Assembly: GCA_029262635.1 (NCBI GenBank)
Contig: JAJCZA010000020.1
Location: 1-64,000, forward strand
DNA from: Vampirovibrionales bacterium
Lineage (GTDB): Bacteria; Cyanobacteriota; Vampirovibrionia; Vampirovibrionales; Vampirovibrionaceae
Direction: 5' to 3'
DNA: 64,000 bases
Shown: piece by piece, positions 123 through 53,503 of the stretch
How the letters are laid out: every line of letters starts with the position of its first letter
Position numbering within the stretch: the first letter of the stretch is position 1
Position numbers and translations under genes: made by a program
The notes under the pieces: generated by a model
Seen by the model: the letters and a program-made list of their open reading frames with translations, nothing else
Database searches by the model: none
What the model was told of the DNA's origin: nothing

Positions 123-914
123 TCAAATAGTTAGCAACACCGTTTTTTCTTGCTTAGATAATCTATACATCTTGGCAGATAGAACCTCCGTTCTTTCTTG
201 CCTAAGGAGGAAAGAAAGAGGGGACTCACTGACAGCGTTTTGGACAGAGGTTTTGGATTTCCAATCTCCGTCCTCATCCTCTGGATAAATAGTTTCAAGG
301 GATATAAAGCTACCATAGTCCTGAAACACGAGCATTTTTTCAGCCTCGCTTTCAGAATACTCATAAGTTTCCATCAATTCCATTTTGACTTCTTGAAAAG
401 TCGGAATACGTTTATATTTTTGTTCAAGTTTTTTTGTTGTTCTGTATATCTGTCTCTCTTCCTTACGAGACTTGCTAGGTAAAGTATCGGTTCTTTTCAG
501 CTCATCGCGTATTGAGCCTAGAATTCTTTGTCTTAGATAAAAGTGCCCTCGGTTTAAATTTTTTTCAGTTAGCTCTCCCTCAAAGCGTCGGATACCATCT
601 AATAGACCTTCTAGGCCCGCATTAATGATATCTCCTAGTTCTACAGAGGGGGGAAGTTGGCCCTTCATGTGGTAAGCAATCCTATAAGCGAGAGGGAGTA
701 ATTGTTTTACGGCTTTGTCTTCTCCCTCTCGGGGGAGCGTCCTATCTCTTTTAGGTTGGTTTTCTGGAGTTTCCTCTTCGAGAAGATCTGTTATTTCGAA
801 CGTGTCATCGGCTTCATCGAAGTCGCCTTGGAACCGAACCGGTTTCGTTTTTTCTGGCTGGGCTGCAAAAACGAGGCTTATTCCCGATTGAGAGGAAATC
901 ACGGGTGATAACAT
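123..914 (-). CDS. FliA/WhiG-type RNA polymerase sigma factor, C-terminally truncated
   Basis: A sigma-70 family protein of 263 aa. After a low-complexity N-terminal extension (about residues 1-65), sigma region 2 is clear: LLPLAYRIAYHM, then GQLPPSVELGDIINAGLEGL, as in FliA/WhiG, followed by RQRILGSIRDELK. A region 3-like helix follows (LPSKSRKEERQIY, then IPTFQEVKMEL). Region 4 starts (LSKQEKTVLL) but stops after LTI, so the -35-binding helix-turn-helix is missing; neither other frame downstream restores a convincing one before the window edge. The start at 914 follows AAGG at about 8 nt. The extension holds PVRFQG (residues 25-30), a motif shared with other proteins here. The family reads flagellar and late genes; with region 4 gone the role is doubtful. 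It may be a decaying gene or one broken by a frameshift. Confidence 0.8.
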   Translation of the reverse strand: MLSPVISSQSGISLVFAAQPEKTKPVRFQGDFDEADDTFEITDLLEEETPENQPKRDRTLPREGEDKAVKQLLPLAYRIAYHMKGQLPPSVELGDIINAGLEGLLDGIRRFEGELTEKNLNRGHFYLRQRILGSIRDELKRTDTLPSKSRKEERQIYRTTKKLEQKYKRIPTFQEVKMELMETYEYSESEAEKMLVFQDYGSFISLETIYPEDEDGDWKSKTSVQNAVSESPLSFLLRQERTEVLSAKMYRLSKQEKTVLLTI

Positions 915-37792: not shown

Positions 37793-39463
37793 ATGACCAT
37801 TCAGCACGTGCCTAGCCGTTCCACCATGCCTAAATTTGAGGGAAGCTACACACGAAACAAGCCCGGTGGTGGGATTGAATCTTATAGATTTGATGACGTT
37901 GTCCTTTTGGATGGAGGGTTTAGACTCCCCTTTGCAACACAGGGTAAGGAACTTGCGACAACTTCTCCTTTTGACATGCTTAAACTCGTTTCAGGAAAAA
38001 TGGTTGGTCGCCTTGAAAAAATGGGGGTTCAAAAAGAAGATATTCAACAAACTAAAACGGGTGGTATTTCGCCCGTCGTCGACTATAACCAACCTTTTAA
38101 TTTCCGATCGGGAATTACTGCTGGCGGACTCGATCCTAATGAATTTACGTCACGAGAGGATAACATCTTGTGTGGAACCGGATTTGATGTAATCGCCCAA
38201 TCGGCTTTCCCACTTTGTAATGGTGGTGAAGACCAAGTTATCCTTGCCGGTGCCGCAGAAAATATGTCCCAATCTCCTCAGAAAGATGCCAAGGTCAATC
38301 TACTGGGTATGAAAGCAGCTAAGGCGGTTAAAGCGATGTCACTTACTAGCCTGAAGAAAATGTCCTTTTCGGAAAAGACTCAGACCCTTAAGGATTCGCT
38401 AAGGGCGATTAAAGACTTCCAGATGTATAAATTAACTAAAAATCTGGATATGAGTTTGATTAAAGGGCTTACAGATCCAGCGGCAGACTGGATGCTGGTT
38501 ACAGCGGATATATTGGCCAATCGGTTTAATATTTCTCAAGAAGCGATCGATCAATACTCCCTTCTGTCTCAACAGCGTTATGCTGAAGCTCAAGAAGCCG
38601 GACGTTTTTCAAAAGAGATTATGCCTATTACTCAGGAAGATTTTCCCAGCCTTCGGGTGAAGCCTGGAACCGTTTTTGATACAGATAGCCACGCCCGTCC
38701 AGATGCGACCATAGAGGGCATCAAAAAACCGAGGCCTATGGGGGGGATGTTTACTAAGTTTAAAAAAGGAAAATATCCTATAGAAAATTTCTTCAAGCAT
38801 AGAGCCTCCAATGCGAGTGGTGTTGTTGATGGGGCAGCTATTGCTCCAATTAGCACTGCGGAATTTGCCTTTAAAAAAGGAGCGTCGGTGTTGGCTAAAG
38901 TCGTGAGTATGGCGACTGTGGGTGTTCATCCGGATATCATGGGCTACGGGCCGGCTAAGGCCATTCCGGCTGCACTAGAACAAGCTGGATTGACCATGGA
39001 TCAAATGGATATGGTTGAAATTAACGAAGCCTTTGCCGGTCAGGTCCTTGCTTGTGCTAACGATCTGGTTATGGACGAAGGTGTTCTAGACGACGTTGAA
39101 AGAAAAATTCTTCTTGGCGCTGAACCTAATGCCTCTGAGGGTGCAGACCGGAATGTCTTGAATGACGTTCGTGAAAAATTGGCCCCGACTCTCCGTAGCC
39201 CGGAACATAAAGCTAAACTCAATAAACTGATGGAAAAGCTCAATGTGGATGGCGGATCCATTGCCATTGGGCATCCGCTACCGGTGTCAGGTTTGCGAAT
39301 TGCCCTTCACGCCAGTCAGATGATGAAAGAGCAAAACCTCCAACATGCCGTAGTTTCAGCCTGCATTGGTGGTGGGCAAGGCATTGCACTGGTTCTTGAA
39401 AACCCACACTACGACCCAACCCAACCCAAGCGGCCCACAAAGGCTATTGCCGCCAATTTTTAG
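37793..39463 (+). CDS. Thiolase (acetyl-CoA acyltransferase family), enlarged
   Basis: Thiolases cleave 3-ketoacyl-CoA with CoA or condense acetyl-CoA. All catalytic residues are present: Cys127 (LCGTG), NEAF, His494 (GHP) and Cys524 (CIGGG), with the usual 30 residues between the last two. At 556 aa it is about 130-150 aa longer than normal; extra sequence lies in the middle (about 165-230) and in front of the NEAF motif and after it (DVERKILLGAEPNASEG region). It is closer to FadA/FadI-type than short-chain PhaA. MPKFEG (residues 12-17) matches the shared N-terminal motif. GGGGAG precedes the ATG. Possible use: acetoacetyl-CoA or fatty acyl breakdown. Confidence 0.87.
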   Translation: MTIQHVPSRSTMPKFEGSYTRNKPGGGIESYRFDDVVLLDGGFRLPFATQGKELATTSPFDMLKLVSGKMVGRLEKMGVQKEDIQQTKTGGISPVVDYNQPFNFRSGITAGGLDPNEFTSREDNILCGTGFDVIAQSAFPLCNGGEDQVILAGAAENMSQSPQKDAKVNLLGMKAAKAVKAMSLTSLKKMSFSEKTQTLKDSLRAIKDFQMYKLTKNLDMSLIKGLTDPAADWMLVTADILANRFNISQEAIDQYSLLSQQRYAEAQEAGRFSKEIMPITQEDFPSLRVKPGTVFDTDSHARPDATIEGIKKPRPMGGMFTKFKKGKYPIENFFKHRASNASGVVDGAAIAPISTAEFAFKKGASVLAKVVSMATVGVHPDIMGYGPAKAIPAALEQAGLTMDQMDMVEINEAFAGQVLACANDLVMDEGVLDDVERKILLGAEPNASEGADRNVLNDVREKLAPTLRSPEHKAKLNKLMEKLNVDGGSIAIGHPLPVSGLRIALHASQMMKEQNLQHAVVSACIGGGQGIALVLENPHYDPTQPKRPTKAIAANF

Positions 39464-41156: not shown

Positions 41157-42368
41157 TTATCTGGTAAGAACAGCCCAACTTCGTTGAATTCGATGGGCTT
41201 TGTCTCGAAAGAATAACACAAGCCGTTGCTTTAATGGGATTTCTAAAGATTCTCGATGATCCGCCAGTGATTTTTCTTCCTGCTCCCTTAAGCTTCGGCG
41301 TAAATCCGCTGCCTCGGCCCGTTTTTTCTGGGCTTCTGTTTTAGGAGTCCACTCTGGGAGCTGAGCCGGTTCACCGTGTTCATTTAGGTGAACATACACG
41401 AGATAGCATGATGCGATTTTTCGAGGTGTCTCAGGTTGGTTTGGGTTAATGGCTTCGATTTCTACCTGAACCTCCATGGATGTTTTCCAGGTTTTGGTGA
41501 CGGTTGCTCGGGCATGAACCGTTTCTCCTTTAAATCCCGGGGCAATAAAACTCATTCGATCCATTCGAACGCCCGCAATAATCTCACCGAGCGCTTGATT
41601 CTTTGCGGCTTCTCGTCCAGCCTTTTCAAGTATTTCCAAAATAACGCCGCCAAAGACATTACCGGTAATGTTGGTGTGCTTTCGGCTCATTGTTTCAGAT
41701 ATTTCAGTGATATAAGGTGTATCACTTTCGCCTAAAGGAATATAGGGAGCTGCCTGCTCTTCTTCCTTTCGGTGAATTTTTCGGACTTCTGCTCCCTGTG
41801 CCCGATGAAAATCCTCAATGGATGTTTCAATGAGAGGAGGAACATGGGTGGGTTTTCTATTTCTATCCAAAGCCACAAAAACCAAATGGGCTGAAGCGAC
41901 AGGCACTTCCGTTGGTTCGCCTCGACGGTAGCCATAAGCCGACACATCAATTTGAACCTCAGCCGAGTGGTTAAATACTTTGGTGATTCGGCTCTTCATT
42001 TTGATGAAATCCCACGCCTTAATAGGGTTTATAAAGTTCAGCCGATCCAGCGATGCGGTAACAAACAGGCTTTTACCTTCCATGTGCCGAAACAAAGGGA
42101 CGGCACCTAACGTGTCAATAAGCTTGAGCAAGTAGCCCGCTTCCACATTGCCCATCTCGTTGCAATGCTCCTGTAAGGCTGGCTGGAAGAGAAACCCTCG
42201 TGATGCGGCTGATGTTTTAGAACGAGGTGATTTCAGGCTCAACGCATCTTCATCCCCGATCCACTCTCCCACTGGATCATCCGCCTGGCCAAATTTCAAC
42301 GGCATTGGGTTTTCCTTTTTTGAAAACAACACAGAGTTTTTGAAAGACGGCATCTGAACAAAGGCCAT
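41157..42368 (-). CDS. Acyl-CoA thioesterase with two hot-dog domains (ACOT9/BFIT-like)
   Basis: Hydrolyses acyl-CoA to free acid and CoA. The 403-aa protein holds two hot-dog repeats: about 70-180 (NVEAGYLLKLIDTLGAVPLF, FINPIKAWDFIKMKSRITK) and about 220-345 (SRKHTNITGNVFGGVILEIL, VRMDRMSFIAPGFKGETVHA). A charged helical tail follows (LRRSLREQEEKSLADHRE). The start is ATG 42368 (AGGA at about 10 nt) or ATG 42305 (AAGGA at 6 nt). In the shorter form the protein begins MPLKFGQAD, the same motif as its neighbours carry. It lies upstream of the RNA methyltransferase. Confidence 0.84.
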   Translation of the reverse strand: MAFVQMPSFKNSVLFSKKENPMPLKFGQADDPVGEWIGDEDALSLKSPRSKTSAASRGFLFQPALQEHCNEMGNVEAGYLLKLIDTLGAVPLFRHMEGKSLFVTASLDRLNFINPIKAWDFIKMKSRITKVFNHSAEVQIDVSAYGYRRGEPTEVPVASAHLVFVALDRNRKPTHVPPLIETSIEDFHRAQGAEVRKIHRKEEEQAAPYIPLGESDTPYITEISETMSRKHTNITGNVFGGVILEILEKAGREAAKNQALGEIIAGVRMDRMSFIAPGFKGETVHARATVTKTWKTSMEVQVEIEAINPNQPETPRKIASCYLVYVHLNEHGEPAQLPEWTPKTEAQKKRAEAADLRRSLREQEEKSLADHRESLEIPLKQRLVLFFRDKAHRIQRSWAVLTR

Positions 42369-48063: not shown

Positions 48064-49659
48064 ATGGAACCTCTGTTTAACTTCAGTACTTTAAATAGCG
48101 GAAACACAACGTCCTTACAAAGCAATGGGAGCGGTATCGGTGTTGATGTCGATCCGTTTGATGGCCGAGGTGGCGACTTTTTGGATCCAAATGATATTGG
48201 CGGCGAAGTCAATAATGTTAACATCGGTCGAGGCGGAAGTGTGTTTGGCGCACACCCTAACTCAAAAGACATTTTGAAAATTACCCGAAGTCAGATTGGT
48301 GGCGTTTTAACCGGATTTACCTCAATCGATGCCACCATTCCTATTTTTCAGGGTGGCAACTTCGCTTTACCCGTACCAGACTTGGGCATTAACCCTAGCC
48401 CGTTTGACATTACGGCCTCTAGCACGTTTTTCGCAAACCAAATTCGTCCGGCTGTCTCACAAGGGAGCGGCAGCTTATTCAGTAGTCACCCCACCTCAGC
48501 AGGAATTTTGTTCGATGTGACCAGCCATGGTAACGCCCTAATTGGTCGCCAGTCTATTTTTAACCGACCCATTTCCCTTCAGCCTGTCAATACTGGCTCC
48601 AATGTCCAGACCTATGTTCCCTTTAATCCAGACAACCCCGTGAATAACAATGCTCCCATTTATGGAATACCTTCGCTCACTCATAACCCCTATGATTTCT
48701 TTAACGGATCATCTCTCGACTTTTATCCGGGCGTATTTTCCAATAACGCTCAGCCGGTTCCTCATCCGTTTTTCTACCCTCAAAAATATCCGTTTGGGCA
48801 ATTCCCCAGCTATTCTACCTACCCGAATAACCTACCGTTTCCGGCACAACATCCTCATTTTGGCTTTCCACCAGCACAGAGTGTAAATATGGGTTCCTTT
48901 CAGGACCGCTACGAATTGGTTCAACGGCTCGTAGCTGAAAACGGAAGCACGGCTCCTGATTTCGTTCCTCGGAATGTTCCCGGTGGCGTGACAGATTTCC
49001 TCTTTCGTTTTCCTTTCCTCAGTGATGAACGTCAGGACGCATTACGAGAAACGTTTGCCAACCCCACTCTGGTGGATGAAGATATTCTGGCCGAAACCGG
49101 CATTTCCTCCGAAGGCGGCGCTTATGACCAAGGTGTTGTTACCAATCCTTATGTTTTTGATGGCTTTTTAACCGATACCAACCCCGCAAGCAGTTTTAAT
49201 CAAGGTCTGGTAGTCACCAATGGCAATGGCAACGGAAAAGTGAAAGGTACCGAAACACAGGATTGGATTTTTGGTAACCAAAGTCGAGCCAACATCATCG
49301 ATGGTCAGGGCGGCTACGACCGGATCCAAGGCGGAATGAGGGCCGATTTAATCAACGTGGCCCAAGGCGACAACGTATCGGCGTTGGCTGGCGAGGACAT
49401 CCTCTTTTTTGACTTTGATCCAGAAACAAGCAACCCGTTTGTTTTGAACACAAGAATTGATGCCGGAAGCGGTTTGGATACAGTGGTGTTAACCGTTGAT
49501 AAAGATTTATCCGACGAAGCTAACGTCCCTTCGTTCACACAGATGGGGGATGGTACTCTACGAGTGAGCCTAAACGGCAAGCACCTCTACGTCAGCAATG
49601 CAGAACGGTTTATCGTCGCTGATAAAGCCGGTGATATTGGTGCCATTTTTGAAGCCTAA
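48064..49659 (+). CDS. Probable secreted protein with RTX-like C-terminal repeats
   Basis: A 531-aa acidic protein without Sec signal peptide. Its N-terminal half contains two copies of an SxFxxHPxSxxIL element (SVFGAHPNSKDIL and SLFSSHPTSAGIL). A Pro/Tyr/Phe-rich segment follows (FFYPQKYPFGQFPSY, about residues 235-275). The C-terminal third holds degenerate Ca-binding RTX nonapeptides (GTETQDWIFGNQSRANIIDG, GGYDRIQGGMRADLINVAQG) and ends as such proteins do. RTX proteins normally leave by type I secretion; no transporter is in the window. ATG start follows AGGAG at 8 nt. Possible adhesin or surface factor, inference only. Confidence 0.7.
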   Translation: MEPLFNFSTLNSGNTTSLQSNGSGIGVDVDPFDGRGGDFLDPNDIGGEVNNVNIGRGGSVFGAHPNSKDILKITRSQIGGVLTGFTSIDATIPIFQGGNFALPVPDLGINPSPFDITASSTFFANQIRPAVSQGSGSLFSSHPTSAGILFDVTSHGNALIGRQSIFNRPISLQPVNTGSNVQTYVPFNPDNPVNNNAPIYGIPSLTHNPYDFFNGSSLDFYPGVFSNNAQPVPHPFFYPQKYPFGQFPSYSTYPNNLPFPAQHPHFGFPPAQSVNMGSFQDRYELVQRLVAENGSTAPDFVPRNVPGGVTDFLFRFPFLSDERQDALRETFANPTLVDEDILAETGISSEGGAYDQGVVTNPYVFDGFLTDTNPASSFNQGLVVTNGNGNGKVKGTETQDWIFGNQSRANIIDGQGGYDRIQGGMRADLINVAQGDNVSALAGEDILFFDFDPETSNPFVLNTRIDAGSGLDTVVLTVDKDLSDEANVPSFTQMGDGTLRVSLNGKHLYVSNAERFIVADKAGDIGAIFEA

Positions 49660-50024: not shown

Positions 50025-50185
50025 CATTTTTGGTGTTTCATGAGAAACGTGGATTTTAATTCCATATAATCTAATAAATATAAATTTGGTTTTTACATCG
50101 ATATAACATGTGGTTTGGGGCGTATAGGATTCGGAGCCTCTCATCGTTTTTCCGTAAAGGTAATTAATTATATTAAGGATATGGT

Positions 50186-53100
50186 GTGGTTAATATGAAT
50201 ACAGTCTCCTTTCCAGCGGCTTCTCCCGCAAAAAAAGACGTAAACAAGCGGGAAATCCAACCCGATAAGCAGCCTGTATTTTCTGGCCCTAACAAACGAG
50301 AGCTAACAGAGACTTCTGCCTCCGCTTTACAAGCAAATTTTATGCCCGTCCTCTTTTCAGGCGAAAAACGAAAGGCTAAAGTTACAGAAGGATTACTTAA
50401 AAAAGCCCTAAAAAAACTTGAAGTACCCGAAATGCTCTCGGTGCTGGAAAACGCAAAAATTTTGGCGGCTGAAAAAGGCCACCCGCAAGTCACCGCTTTG
50501 CACCTACTAACAACTCAAGTGAATGCCATGCTCGGTGACATTAACCCCAAGGCGACGTTAAGCCGACAAGGGAATACAATCCTGAAGCAGTTTGAAAACC
50601 CTCGCGGCCTCTGGTCAGCTAACTTAGGAATTATTCAAAAGGCGTCTCATCCTGAAGACATTTTATTCCATTTAAAACGAGTCGCTATCAAACTCCACGA
50701 AACGTTAGATAACATTCCCGCGAAATCCCCTCTCAAGGTCACCCAAGTGAAGTTGAGTCAGAACGTCCTTGACTTATTAATGGAGCAGATTCAGTTTTTA
50801 AAAGATCGTCGTCCCAGTGACAAAGAAATGCATGAAGTGACAAGCAGAGAGGTTGATGCAAATTTACCCCCTGAGTTTGAGGCTAGCTATGGTGCTCAAG
50901 AAAATGAAATAGAGAAAATAGGTACGGATTTAGAAGCCCGATTCCCAAAACATTTAAAGGCTCTAACCTCTTACGATCTTCAGATTCTAGAGACGTATGT
51001 TTCATTCAAAAAGCTTTCAGATGCTTATAATCAGGTTAAGTTGGATATCGAGTCAGGCGAAACCCAAATGTCGGAAGACCAAAAAGCGACGAAAGAGACT
51101 TTTGCAATCACGTCTCTATCTCCGGAAGGACCTGTTCAACAGAGTGTTCCGTTCAATGACATGCCGAAAGTACTTGAACGCTTCAAAAAAGACTTTCTGA
51201 CTCTCCTCGATCAGGCTTTTTTAAATGATTCTGATCGAGTGTCGGAATCAGAGCAGGAGCTCGACACAATCCCTTTAGAGGCGATTGAATTGATGCTTAA
51301 ACTTAAAGGGGTGGAGAAAAAACTCGATCAGATGGATGAACAGGTTGAAACCTTACGACTTAAAGCGGAAGAGAATTGGCGAAAAGAAATAGACCAGGGC
51401 ATTTTCTCACACATCATCACGGGTACCTATAATGAATTTATTCCCTCAGGTTATTTAAAAGACACGCAAATAGCTCAAGCTCGCTCTCTGTTTTTAAGTT
51501 TGATTAACACTCTGGTGGGTGATCATGCGTCCACCTCAGAATCATCAAGCGCTTATCTGAATCGAATTGTTGAAAATGGCGGTGGTGATCCAGAAATTAA
51601 AAATCTGACCCAAATGCTTCGAATGCGAGAAATCCTCCTGAGCAAAGTTGAAGGTAGTACAATGCCACTGCTTCCTGGCGAACCCAAGCCGTTGCCTTCA
51701 CTCTCTCTCTTAAAAGAACTGAAAGATGTTACGGCTTTAATTAAGGCTTATTCCCAAGTCGACTGGAAGGATCTTAAAAATAAATCCGTCGATTTGAAGC
51801 TGGCGAAAACGTTGTTAGATTCCAACCCGCTCATTCCGCCACCGGTTCGATCAGAACTGATAAATTTTCTAAAGCAGGGCAATAAAAATAACTGGCAGGC
51901 ACAACCGATGCTGGTTCTGATGGGTGGCTATGGAACAGGGCTGGTTAAACGAGAAGTCATCAAATTTCTCGAAGCTATCCTACCCATGAACGCTTATGAA
52001 GCGAAGGGACCTTATGACGGTCAGCTTACGAACACCGAGCAGGGAGCACTTTCGAAAGAAAAAGAACTTTCTGTACCCGCTAAAGCTCTAATCCACAGCG
52101 TTGAATCCGCCCGACAAAAGGGCACACTGCCCACCCCATCACCCAGTACGTTTATTAATCTGGGTAATCTATTGAATTTTCTAGAAGAAGGCGGATTCTC
52201 CCAATTTAGCTCCCTTATGGGCACACAAAAGCGCAAAGATTTCGAAGAACCTGAACTACGAGGCATTACCATGGACTTGAGTCCGTATGTGTTTGTAACT
52301 TCCGTTGAAAATGAAGGCGTGCTCGACTATTTGGGCAGTCATTATGGGGGCAATCTAAATCATCGAGATTGGAGCTTGATTGAGCTGGGTAAAGACATTG
52401 ATATTTTCACTAAAATCAGAGCGGCTGAAACAGAAATTGCCCCGGCAATTGAGGCAGAATATAACGCTAGGTTCGCCAAAGGAGCAGTTAAAACCATTGT
52501 AACCTATTGGGCGATTGACGCTCGGCATGATGAAATTGAAAGGATATTAACCGAAGCCGCTCGAACCGCCGCAGGAAAAACCAGTAGTACCCAAACCCAA
52601 ACAATTCCAGCCGAGGTGGAAATCCTTGAAAAAGAGTACTTAGGACCTCAAACAACCTCTTTCTTAAACAAGCATTTAACCGAAGATACGGTGGGAAGCG
52701 TAAACGCCTTAGCAGCCTTCGGCTATGGTGGCGGTGCGGTTATGCGCATGGGTATTCATAGCGCTGGAACATTTTCTCGTAAAGATACAGGCGGACGATT
52801 AGCCCAAATGAGACATGCCGTCGGCCCTATCGGTACTATGGCAAAAGATTCCAGCATTAAAGCAACGGAATTGCTTTCAGCGGTTGTTAGCGAGCTCACC
52901 GATTCAGGCAGTGGAAAAAAGGCGATGTACAAAGTGTTTGAGGATATGACACAAGGCCATGAGCTGATTGTCAATTGGAAGGAAAACGTGGATGGCCCTA
53001 GCGCAGGCGCCGCGATGGCCACCGCGACGATTAGTCGATTAACAGGAATTCCTGTACGTCATGATGTAGCCATGACCGGCACGCTCGCCGATGGATTGCT

Positions 53101-53503
53101 AGTGGGTGAAATTGGCGGCATTTTCAATAAAATTTCAGCCGCTTACGTTGCCGGAACCACCAGTGACATTAAAACCATCCTCATGCCAAAAGCCAACTAT
53201 ATTGAAATGCTAAAAGACCATCCTCAATTTGTCGAAAAGCTAGAACAAGCGGGAACAAAACTAATTGGCGTTGAAACACTGGATGAGGTACTTCGACATT
53301 CGCTGGTGGATTACCAGAAACTCCACCAACCCGCGGAAATTAACACCAAACCAGACGCCGAGGTCCAGGATCCAACAGAGAAAATTCTAACGGTCATTCG
53401 AGAAGCCAACAAAACATCAGCTCAATCAGCCCAAGCCATTATCCCGGATGTCGTCGCTGCTGTTATTAAGCAATTGGCGGAACAGGGGATCTTAAAGAAA
53501 TAA
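50186..53503 (+). CDS. Lon-like serine protease with Clp_N-like region and degenerate AAA+ P-loop
   Basis: A 1105-aa protein. The C-terminal part (about 840-1050) is a Lon protease domain: DGPSAGAAMATATISRLTG with Ser939 and GGIFNKISAAYVAG with Lys982, the 43-residue spacing of the E. coli Lon dyad. Residues about 85-130 (LENAKILAAEKGHPQVTALH) resemble a Clp_N repeat, then a long helical/coiled region. The expected Walker A (LVLMGGYGTGLVKREV, 576-591) lacks GK[ST], so ATPase activity is doubtful. The N-terminus has two copies of the shared motif, PVFSG (30-34) and PVLFSG (54-59). GTG start with AAGGAT 6-7 nt upstream. Not a normal Lon, LonB or LonC; substrate unknown. Confidence 0.82.
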   Translation: MVNMNTVSFPAASPAKKDVNKREIQPDKQPVFSGPNKRELTETSASALQANFMPVLFSGEKRKAKVTEGLLKKALKKLEVPEMLSVLENAKILAAEKGHPQVTALHLLTTQVNAMLGDINPKATLSRQGNTILKQFENPRGLWSANLGIIQKASHPEDILFHLKRVAIKLHETLDNIPAKSPLKVTQVKLSQNVLDLLMEQIQFLKDRRPSDKEMHEVTSREVDANLPPEFEASYGAQENEIEKIGTDLEARFPKHLKALTSYDLQILETYVSFKKLSDAYNQVKLDIESGETQMSEDQKATKETFAITSLSPEGPVQQSVPFNDMPKVLERFKKDFLTLLDQAFLNDSDRVSESEQELDTIPLEAIELMLKLKGVEKKLDQMDEQVETLRLKAEENWRKEIDQGIFSHIITGTYNEFIPSGYLKDTQIAQARSLFLSLINTLVGDHASTSESSSAYLNRIVENGGGDPEIKNLTQMLRMREILLSKVEGSTMPLLPGEPKPLPSLSLLKELKDVTALIKAYSQVDWKDLKNKSVDLKLAKTLLDSNPLIPPPVRSELINFLKQGNKNNWQAQPMLVLMGGYGTGLVKREVIKFLEAILPMNAYEAKGPYDGQLTNTEQGALSKEKELSVPAKALIHSVESARQKGTLPTPSPSTFINLGNLLNFLEEGGFSQFSSLMGTQKRKDFEEPELRGITMDLSPYVFVTSVENEGVLDYLGSHYGGNLNHRDWSLIELGKDIDIFTKIRAAETEIAPAIEAEYNARFAKGAVKTIVTYWAIDARHDEIERILTEAARTAAGKTSSTQTQTIPAEVEILEKEYLGPQTTSFLNKHLTEDTVGSVNALAAFGYGGGAVMRMGIHSAGTFSRKDTGGRLAQMRHAVGPIGTMAKDSSIKATELLSAVVSELTDSGSGKKAMYKVFEDMTQGHELIVNWKENVDGPSAGAAMATATISRLTGIPVRHDVAMTGTLADGLLVGEIGGIFNKISAAYVAGTTSDIKTILMPKANYIEMLKDHPQFVEKLEQAGTKLIGVETLDEVLRHSLVDYQKLHQPAEINTKPDAEVQDPTEKILTVIREANKTSAQSAQAIIPDVVAAVIKQLAEQGILKK

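What the first reader, a model, noticed from the sequence alone, without database searches (positions are those of the whole stretch)
50186..53503. Unusual Lon-like protease with Clp_N-like region and broken P-loop
The Ser939-Lys982 dyad has exactly the Lon spacing, but the ATPase Walker A lacks GK[ST], the N-terminal part resembles Clp_N rather than the Lon substrate domain, and the whole is 1105 aa. This domain mix is not one I know as a standard Lon class.
Basis: partly seen in the sequence, partly recalled or inferred. Interest (0 to 1): 0.6.

Follow-up and report, generated by a model that had tools for sequence, protein, structure and literature searches.

The report
Lon-type protease with dead ATPase
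This gene encodes a large relative of the Lon protein-shredding machine that keeps its cutting site but has lost every part needed to burn ATP on its own, and the same losses in a distant relative suggest it is a working, ATP-independent variant rather than a decaying gene.

Summary
Window 50186-53503 (+) is one intact 1105-aa ORF with a good ribosome site and native codon usage. Its C-terminal third is an S16 Lon protease domain (Pfam Lon_C, E 3e-18) with Ser939 and Lys982 43 residues apart. Residues ~525-815 are a Lon AAA+ module (profile match to LonA, E 9e-9, 238 columns; an AlphaFold model matches LonA structures) that has lost its own ATP machinery: no GxxGxGK[ST], no Walker B Glu, sensor-1 Asn to Glu, sensor-2 Arg to Asp, pore loop 1 deleted. 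Only the arginine-finger Arg survives. One other member was found, in another genus of the same family (1035 aa, 28% identical). It has the same losses and the same odd motif (G-x-YGT-x-LVK), and lies directly behind an active Lon gene. All 75 comparison Lons have an intact P-loop. The Clp_N reading is weak: the relative just reaches Pfam's cut-off over 19 residues; this protein does not. The window's genome has no other Lon. Best explanation: an ATP-independent, Lon-like compartmental protease, working like LonC but apparently derived from the LonA side. Lon-like proteases without ATPase are already known (LonC), so this is a new variant of a known kind.

The parts
50186..53503 (+). Whole ORF, degenerate Lon-type protease, 1105 aa (P0001)
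50175..50179 (+). AAGGA ribosome-binding site, 6 nt before the GTG start
   Evidence: sequence printed
50186..50377 (+). Low-complexity N-terminal leader (res 1-64) with two 'F-S-G' elements (QPVFSG, PVLFSG), like leaders of the other Lons of the order
   Evidence: function unknown
50378..50905 (+). Helical N-terminal domain (res 65-240); Clp_N-like motif at about res 84-112 (LSVLENAKILAAEKGHPQVTALHLLTTQV)
   Evidence: weak:
50906..51745 (+). Long helical/coiled-coil-like linker (res 241-520), no family match above cut-off
   Evidence: low-confidence model
51746..52630 (+). Degenerate LonA-like AAA+ module (res 521-815)
   Evidence: hhalign prob 95.7, E 8.7e-9; AF2 plus Foldseek
51905..51949 (+). 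Remnant of the P-loop, PMLVLMGGYGTGLVK (res 574-588); motif G-x-YGT-x-LVK shared with the relative
52151..52171 (+). Walker B position, FINLGNL (res 656-662), acidic pair replaced by G660-N661
52307..52309 (+). Sensor-1 position, Asn replaced by Glu708
52364..52366 (+). Arginine-finger position, Arg727 retained
52529..52531 (+). Sensor-2 position, Arg replaced by Asp782
52631..53335 (+). S16 Lon protease domain (res 816-1050)
   Evidence: AF2 pLDDT about 90 in its C-terminal half
53000..53002 (+). Catalytic Ser939
53129..53131 (+). Catalytic Lys982

Best explanation
A Lon-type self-compartmentalising protease whose AAA+ ring has become a non-hydrolysing scaffold. Shown here by sequence: an intact Ser-Lys protease domain, and a collinear AAA+ module lacking every cis element of ATP binding and hydrolysis and lacking pore loop 1, conserved in this state in a second genus. 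Inferred: the pseudo-AAA+ and protease domains still form a hexameric chamber; the helical N-terminal domain and long linker replace the Lon substrate domain and recruit or gate substrates; peptides and already unfolded proteins diffuse in and are cut without ATP, while folded proteins are excluded. In mechanism this is what LonC does, but the gene appears to come from the LonA side of the family.
For: Lon_C 3e-18 with dyad at 43-residue spacing. AAA region alone matches a LonA profile, E 8.7e-9 over 238 columns, and with the protease domain 4e-32. Motif losses read off the alignment in both members. AF2 model of res 520-1050, pLDDT 75, best 50 PDB matches all LonA-type, E down to 3.7e-23. Relative in G005 (P0002) is 28-29% identical over the full length; conservation is highest at the dyad half (50%) and around the altered P-loop (41%), lowest in the N-terminal regions (about 20%): the altered ATPase is under constraint. 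75 of 75 comparison Lons keep the P-loop. Own genome has no other Lon_C protein except RadA. MtaLonC is a described hexameric, ATP-independent Lon-like protease that degrades only unfolded substrates (PMC3391209).
Against: Only two members are known, both from draft genomes or MAGs. The protease domain is divergent (the LonA stretch 'HxHxPEGATPKDG' reads 'LIVNWKENVDG'; P0002 has GNSAG for GPSAG), so activity is likely but unproven. Hexamer formation and ATP independence are inferred. The AF2 alignment was mostly LonA, which biases the model toward the LonA fold. LonC kinship of the protease domain is not rejected (AU p 0.34).
Confidence: 0.6

Rival explanations
1. Regulatory subunit of a mixed Lon ring: the dead subunit joins hexamers with an active Lon and donates its retained arginine finger to the neighbour's ATP site, while its own N-domain brings new substrates.
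For: In G005 the homologue lies 222 nt downstream of an active Lon gene on the same strand; the Arg-finger Arg, which acts in trans, is the only ATPase element kept in both members.
Against: The window's genome (95.9% complete) has no other Lon beside RadA, and no Lon is adjacent on the contig, so here it must work alone unless the partner lies in the missing few percent.
Confidence: 0.15
2. A member of the known LonC subfamily that has diverged.
For: Same functional state (dead AAA+, live dyad); placing it with a LonC protease domain is not rejected (AU p 0.34); it has a 4-residue insertion (TTSD) in the same loop as the LonC insertion.
Against: No LonC_helical or AAA_32 match at E<=10; no CX3GLX(G/E) insertion, and P0002 has no insertion there at all; AAA region matches LonA but not the one LonC gene at hand, though that gene is split; tree puts it on the LonA side (92/91); LonC hit in PDB only E 0.009 against 8e-12 for LonA and LonB.
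Confidence: 0.1
3. A dedicated processing or regulatory protease with a narrow set of clients chosen by the N-terminal domain, not a general scavenger.
For: The N-terminal domain and linker (about 520 aa) are very large and fast-evolving; Clp_N-type modules are attached to other proteins in this class, including signal peptidase I in the same genome.
Against: No client known and no conserved gene neighbour: the two members lie next to different genes.
Confidence: 0.1
4. A decaying Lon pseudogene.
For: Walker motifs lost; few members; most of the order has lost Lon altogether.
Against: Intact 1105-aa ORF with ribosome site and native codon usage; the same substitutions and a shared motif at 28% identity in another genus; dyad half 50% identical.
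Confidence: 0.05

Closest known systems
LonC (MtaLonC / TTC1975; PMC3391209)
   Same: Live Lon protease domain with a degenerate AAA+ module; Walker B Glu and sensors lost; expected ATP-independent action on unfolded substrates
   Different: No LonC helical extension (LonC_helical) match, no LonC-specific CX3GLX(G/E) insertion; AAA+ region aligns with LonA; MtaLonC keeps a Walker-A-like motif and binds nucleotide; 1105 aa against about 720
LonA (E. coli, Bacillus, Yersinia Lon)
   Same: Order of domains N-domain, helical linker, AAA+, S16 protease; collinear AAA+ fold; A-type DGPSAG active site
   Different: No LON substrate-binding domain detected, no functional P-loop, Walker B, sensors 1 and 2, no pore loop 1
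P0003, active Lon beside the homologue in G005 (JAIEMW010000004.1)
   Same: Same family of organisms, tandem with the homologue, similar FG leader, no LON substrate-binding domain in the matches shown
   Different: Full set of AAA+ motifs; 23% identity; 898 aa
LonB / LonBA (PMC9569914)
   Same: S16 dyad; non-standard N-terminal regions
   Different: LonB and LonBA keep a working ATPase; AAA region shows no match to the LonB tested
ClpA/ClpB/ClpC N-domain (Pfam Clp_N)
   Same: Short motif L..A...A...GH..V...H.L in the N-terminal helical domain
   Different: Only one half-repeat recognisable; below Pfam cut-off in this protein; no Clp ATPase

Membership tests
Lon protease family S16 | Lon_C proteolytic domain with Ser-Lys dyad | tested here: met
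   E 3e-18, Ser939/Lys982, spacing 43
LonA (endopeptidase La) | AAA+ with Walker A GPPGVGKT and Walker B DE | tested here: not met
   GGYGTGLVK; FINLGNL; NCBIfam lon score 67.6 against cut-off 608
LonA (endopeptidase La) | N-terminal LON substrate-binding domain (PF02190) | tested here: not met
   no match at E<=10
LonA (endopeptidase La) | AAA+ module collinear with LonA | tested here: met
   hhalign E 8.7e-9, 238 columns
LonB | Full-length LonB model (TIGR00764) above cut-off | tested here: not met
   74.3 bits against cut-off 516.6, protease part only
LonC | Degenerate AAA+ with live dyad | tested here: met
LonC | Helical hairpin extension (LonC_helical PF20437) | tested here: not met
   no match in protein or in the genome
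LonC | CX3GLX(G/E) insertion between helix a3 and strand b9 | tested here: not met
   P0001 has TTSD, P0002 nothing; a LonC row shows the motif
LonC | Protease domain groups with LonC in a tree | tested here: inconclusive
   best tree says LonA side (92/91) but AU p 0.34 for joining LonC; one LonC row only
LonC | No ATPase activity, ATP-independent proteolysis | not testable with these tools
   needs biochemistry
Clp_N domain | Pfam PF02861 above cut-off | tested here: inconclusive
   not in P0001; exactly at cut-off in P0002; decoy ranks 4/380 and 0/380

The most novel reading that the evidence does not exclude
A separate, so far undescribed Lon subfamily in one family of Vampirovibrionia-like bacteria, in which a LonA-derived protease lost its ATPase independently of LonC, kept the ring as a scaffold with a conserved remodelled P-loop, and swapped the Lon substrate domain for a Clp_N-like recruitment domain.
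Probability: 0.4. Interest if true: 0.55.

Novelty: new variant of a known kind. Interest (0 to 1): 0.42.

Why it matters
If right, ATP-free Lon proteases arose more than once, so the Lon ring is useful without its motor. The pair of members gives a natural test of which AAA+ residues can be lost together and what the remodelled, conserved P-loop does. The G005 tandem of an active and a dead Lon is a ready system for asking whether dead subunits regulate live ones.

Tried and rejected
AF2 of the full chain with 3 sequences gave pLDDT 39 and was discarded. Broader ortholog search: an HMM of the AAA region in 382 genomes of the class found only G000 and G005 plus a weak hit to an ordinary Lon in G141; a pattern scan of 84,980 genomes found only the G005 contig, but the patterns are narrow, so distant members could be missed. 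A formal P-loop string at residues 792-799 was rejected (helical, not conserved). A viral-contig scan with P0003 alone found nothing; a LonA alignment found 80 ordinary Lons, used for the model. The plasmid search gave ordinary Lons. Literature: no paper on Lon in Vampirovibrio; six papers hold 'Vampirovibrionia' and 'protease', none about Lon from title and abstract.

Full report
Setting. The window is contig C20 of a 3.0 Mb genome, 95.9% complete, whose relatives are Cyanobacteria in NCBI's naming (one search names the nearest relative's contig 'Cyanobacteria bacterium'). The class name Vampirovibrionia is my own inference from gene content and genome sizes of the relatives.

Observation. 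The ORF 50186-53503 (+) encodes 1105 aa. The start GTG has AAGGA six bases upstream, and codon usage is that of the genome, so it is a native, intact gene. The only Pfam match above cut-off is Lon_C at 816-1041, E 3e-18; NCBIfam lists the LonA and LonB models far below their cut-offs. Ser939 and Lys982 lie 43 residues apart, as in Lon.

The AAA+ module. No AAA model of Pfam matches. A two-sequence profile of the region without the protease domain nevertheless aligns with a LonA profile over 238 columns, probability 95.7, E 8.7e-9, and does so collinearly: the LPW linker, the P-loop strand, Walker B, sensor 1, arginine finger, lid and sensor 2 fall in order. Against single sequences it matches two of four LonA chains well (E about 2e-5 and 3e-5), the other two weakly, and neither the LonB nor the LonC at hand. 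An AlphaFold2 model of residues 520-1050, built on 52 sequences, has mean pLDDT 75, and its best 50 PDB matches are LonA-type chains including mitochondrial LONP1, E down to 3.7e-23. That model is partly guided by the LonA rows in the alignment. The region of the missing pore loop (residues 601-653) is modelled with low confidence.

What is broken. From: GPPGVGKTS reads GGYGTGLVK (either Lys to Leu and Thr to Val, or a two-residue insertion before Lys with Arg/Gln for Thr; in the relative the last Gly is Glu as well). Walker B LLLDEI reads INLGNL (P0002 VVLDGL). Sensor 1 Asn is Glu708. Sensor 2 Arg is Asp782. The pore-loop-1 segment (RGHRRTYIGA) has no counterpart. Only the arginine-finger Arg727 is kept. 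As a control, 50 of 50 other Lons in the model alignment and 25 of 25 long LonA ORFs of the class keep GxxGxGK[ST].

A second member. G005, another genus of the same family, carries P0002 (1035 aa), 28-29% identical over its length. It shares all the losses and the motif G-x-YGT-x-LVK. Identity is 50% in the dyad half of the protease, 41% around the remodelled P-loop, and about 20% in the N-terminal regions. Its Ser911 and Lys954 are 43 apart (sequence). Loss of ATPase therefore predates the split of the two genera, and the remnant is under constraint. P0002 lies 222 nt behind P0003, an active Lon on the same strand. HMM search of 382 genomes of the class and a pattern scan of 84,980 genomes gave no further member.

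Lon in the order. Of 18 genomes of the order, four (including this one) encode any Lon; the rest have only RadA or nothing above threshold. None of the active Lons of the order shows the usual LON substrate-binding domain in the listed matches (three of the tables were cut at 25 rows). The window's genome has no other Lon.

N-terminus. The Clp_N reading rests on one half-repeat. P0001 alone gives no Pfam hit, and 4 of 380 decoy fragments score as well. P0002 gives 20.7 bits, exactly the cut-off, over 19 residues, and beats all decoys. I regard a divergent Clp_N domain as possible, not shown.

Placement. On the protease domain P0001 and P0002 are sisters (98/92). They fall on the LonA side of the tree, apart from LonB and LonC (92/91), but branches are long and a LonC grouping is not rejected (AU p 0.34). 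LonC-specific features were tested and not met.

Mechanism. The best-supported reading is an ATP-independent chamber protease that works like LonC (PMC3391209): hexameric, open to unfolded chains, with the N-terminal half as recruiter or gate. The dead ATPase and live dyad are shown at sequence level; ring, ATP independence and clients are inferred. The retained arginine finger and the G005 tandem leave room for mixed rings, but this genome seems to lack a partner.

Noticed in passing
window 123-914 (-), 41157-42368 (-), 37793-39463 (+), and all Lons of the order: Many cytoplasmic-type proteins begin with a disordered leader ending in P..[hydrophobic]-x-F-(Q/S)-G (for example a sigma factor...EKTKPVRFQGDFDE; a thioesterase-like protein...NPMPLKFGQADD). 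18 of 367 ORFs against 4.0 expected in this genome, P 2e-7, motif chosen partly after seeing examples; not significant with the same motif in G005 (8 against 5.0, P 0.13) or G020.
   Followed up: partly
L208:486-1613 (G000 contig C29, about 82 kb): Signal peptidase I (Peptidase_S26, E 2e-36) fused to an N-terminal Clp_N domain (22.6 bits, above cut-off) in the window's own genome.
   Followed up: partly
L207:1322-2692 (G057): A 456-aa protein made of six Clp_N repeats and no ATPase, next to a tilS-like gene; similar ORFs occur in other genomes of its family.
   Followed up: partly
order of the window's genome: Lon is missing from 14 of 18 genomes of the order, although LonA is common in another family of the class.
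   Followed up: no
window 48064-49659 (+): 531-aa upstream neighbour rich in Asn, Phe and Pro with no Pfam match at all.
   Followed up: no
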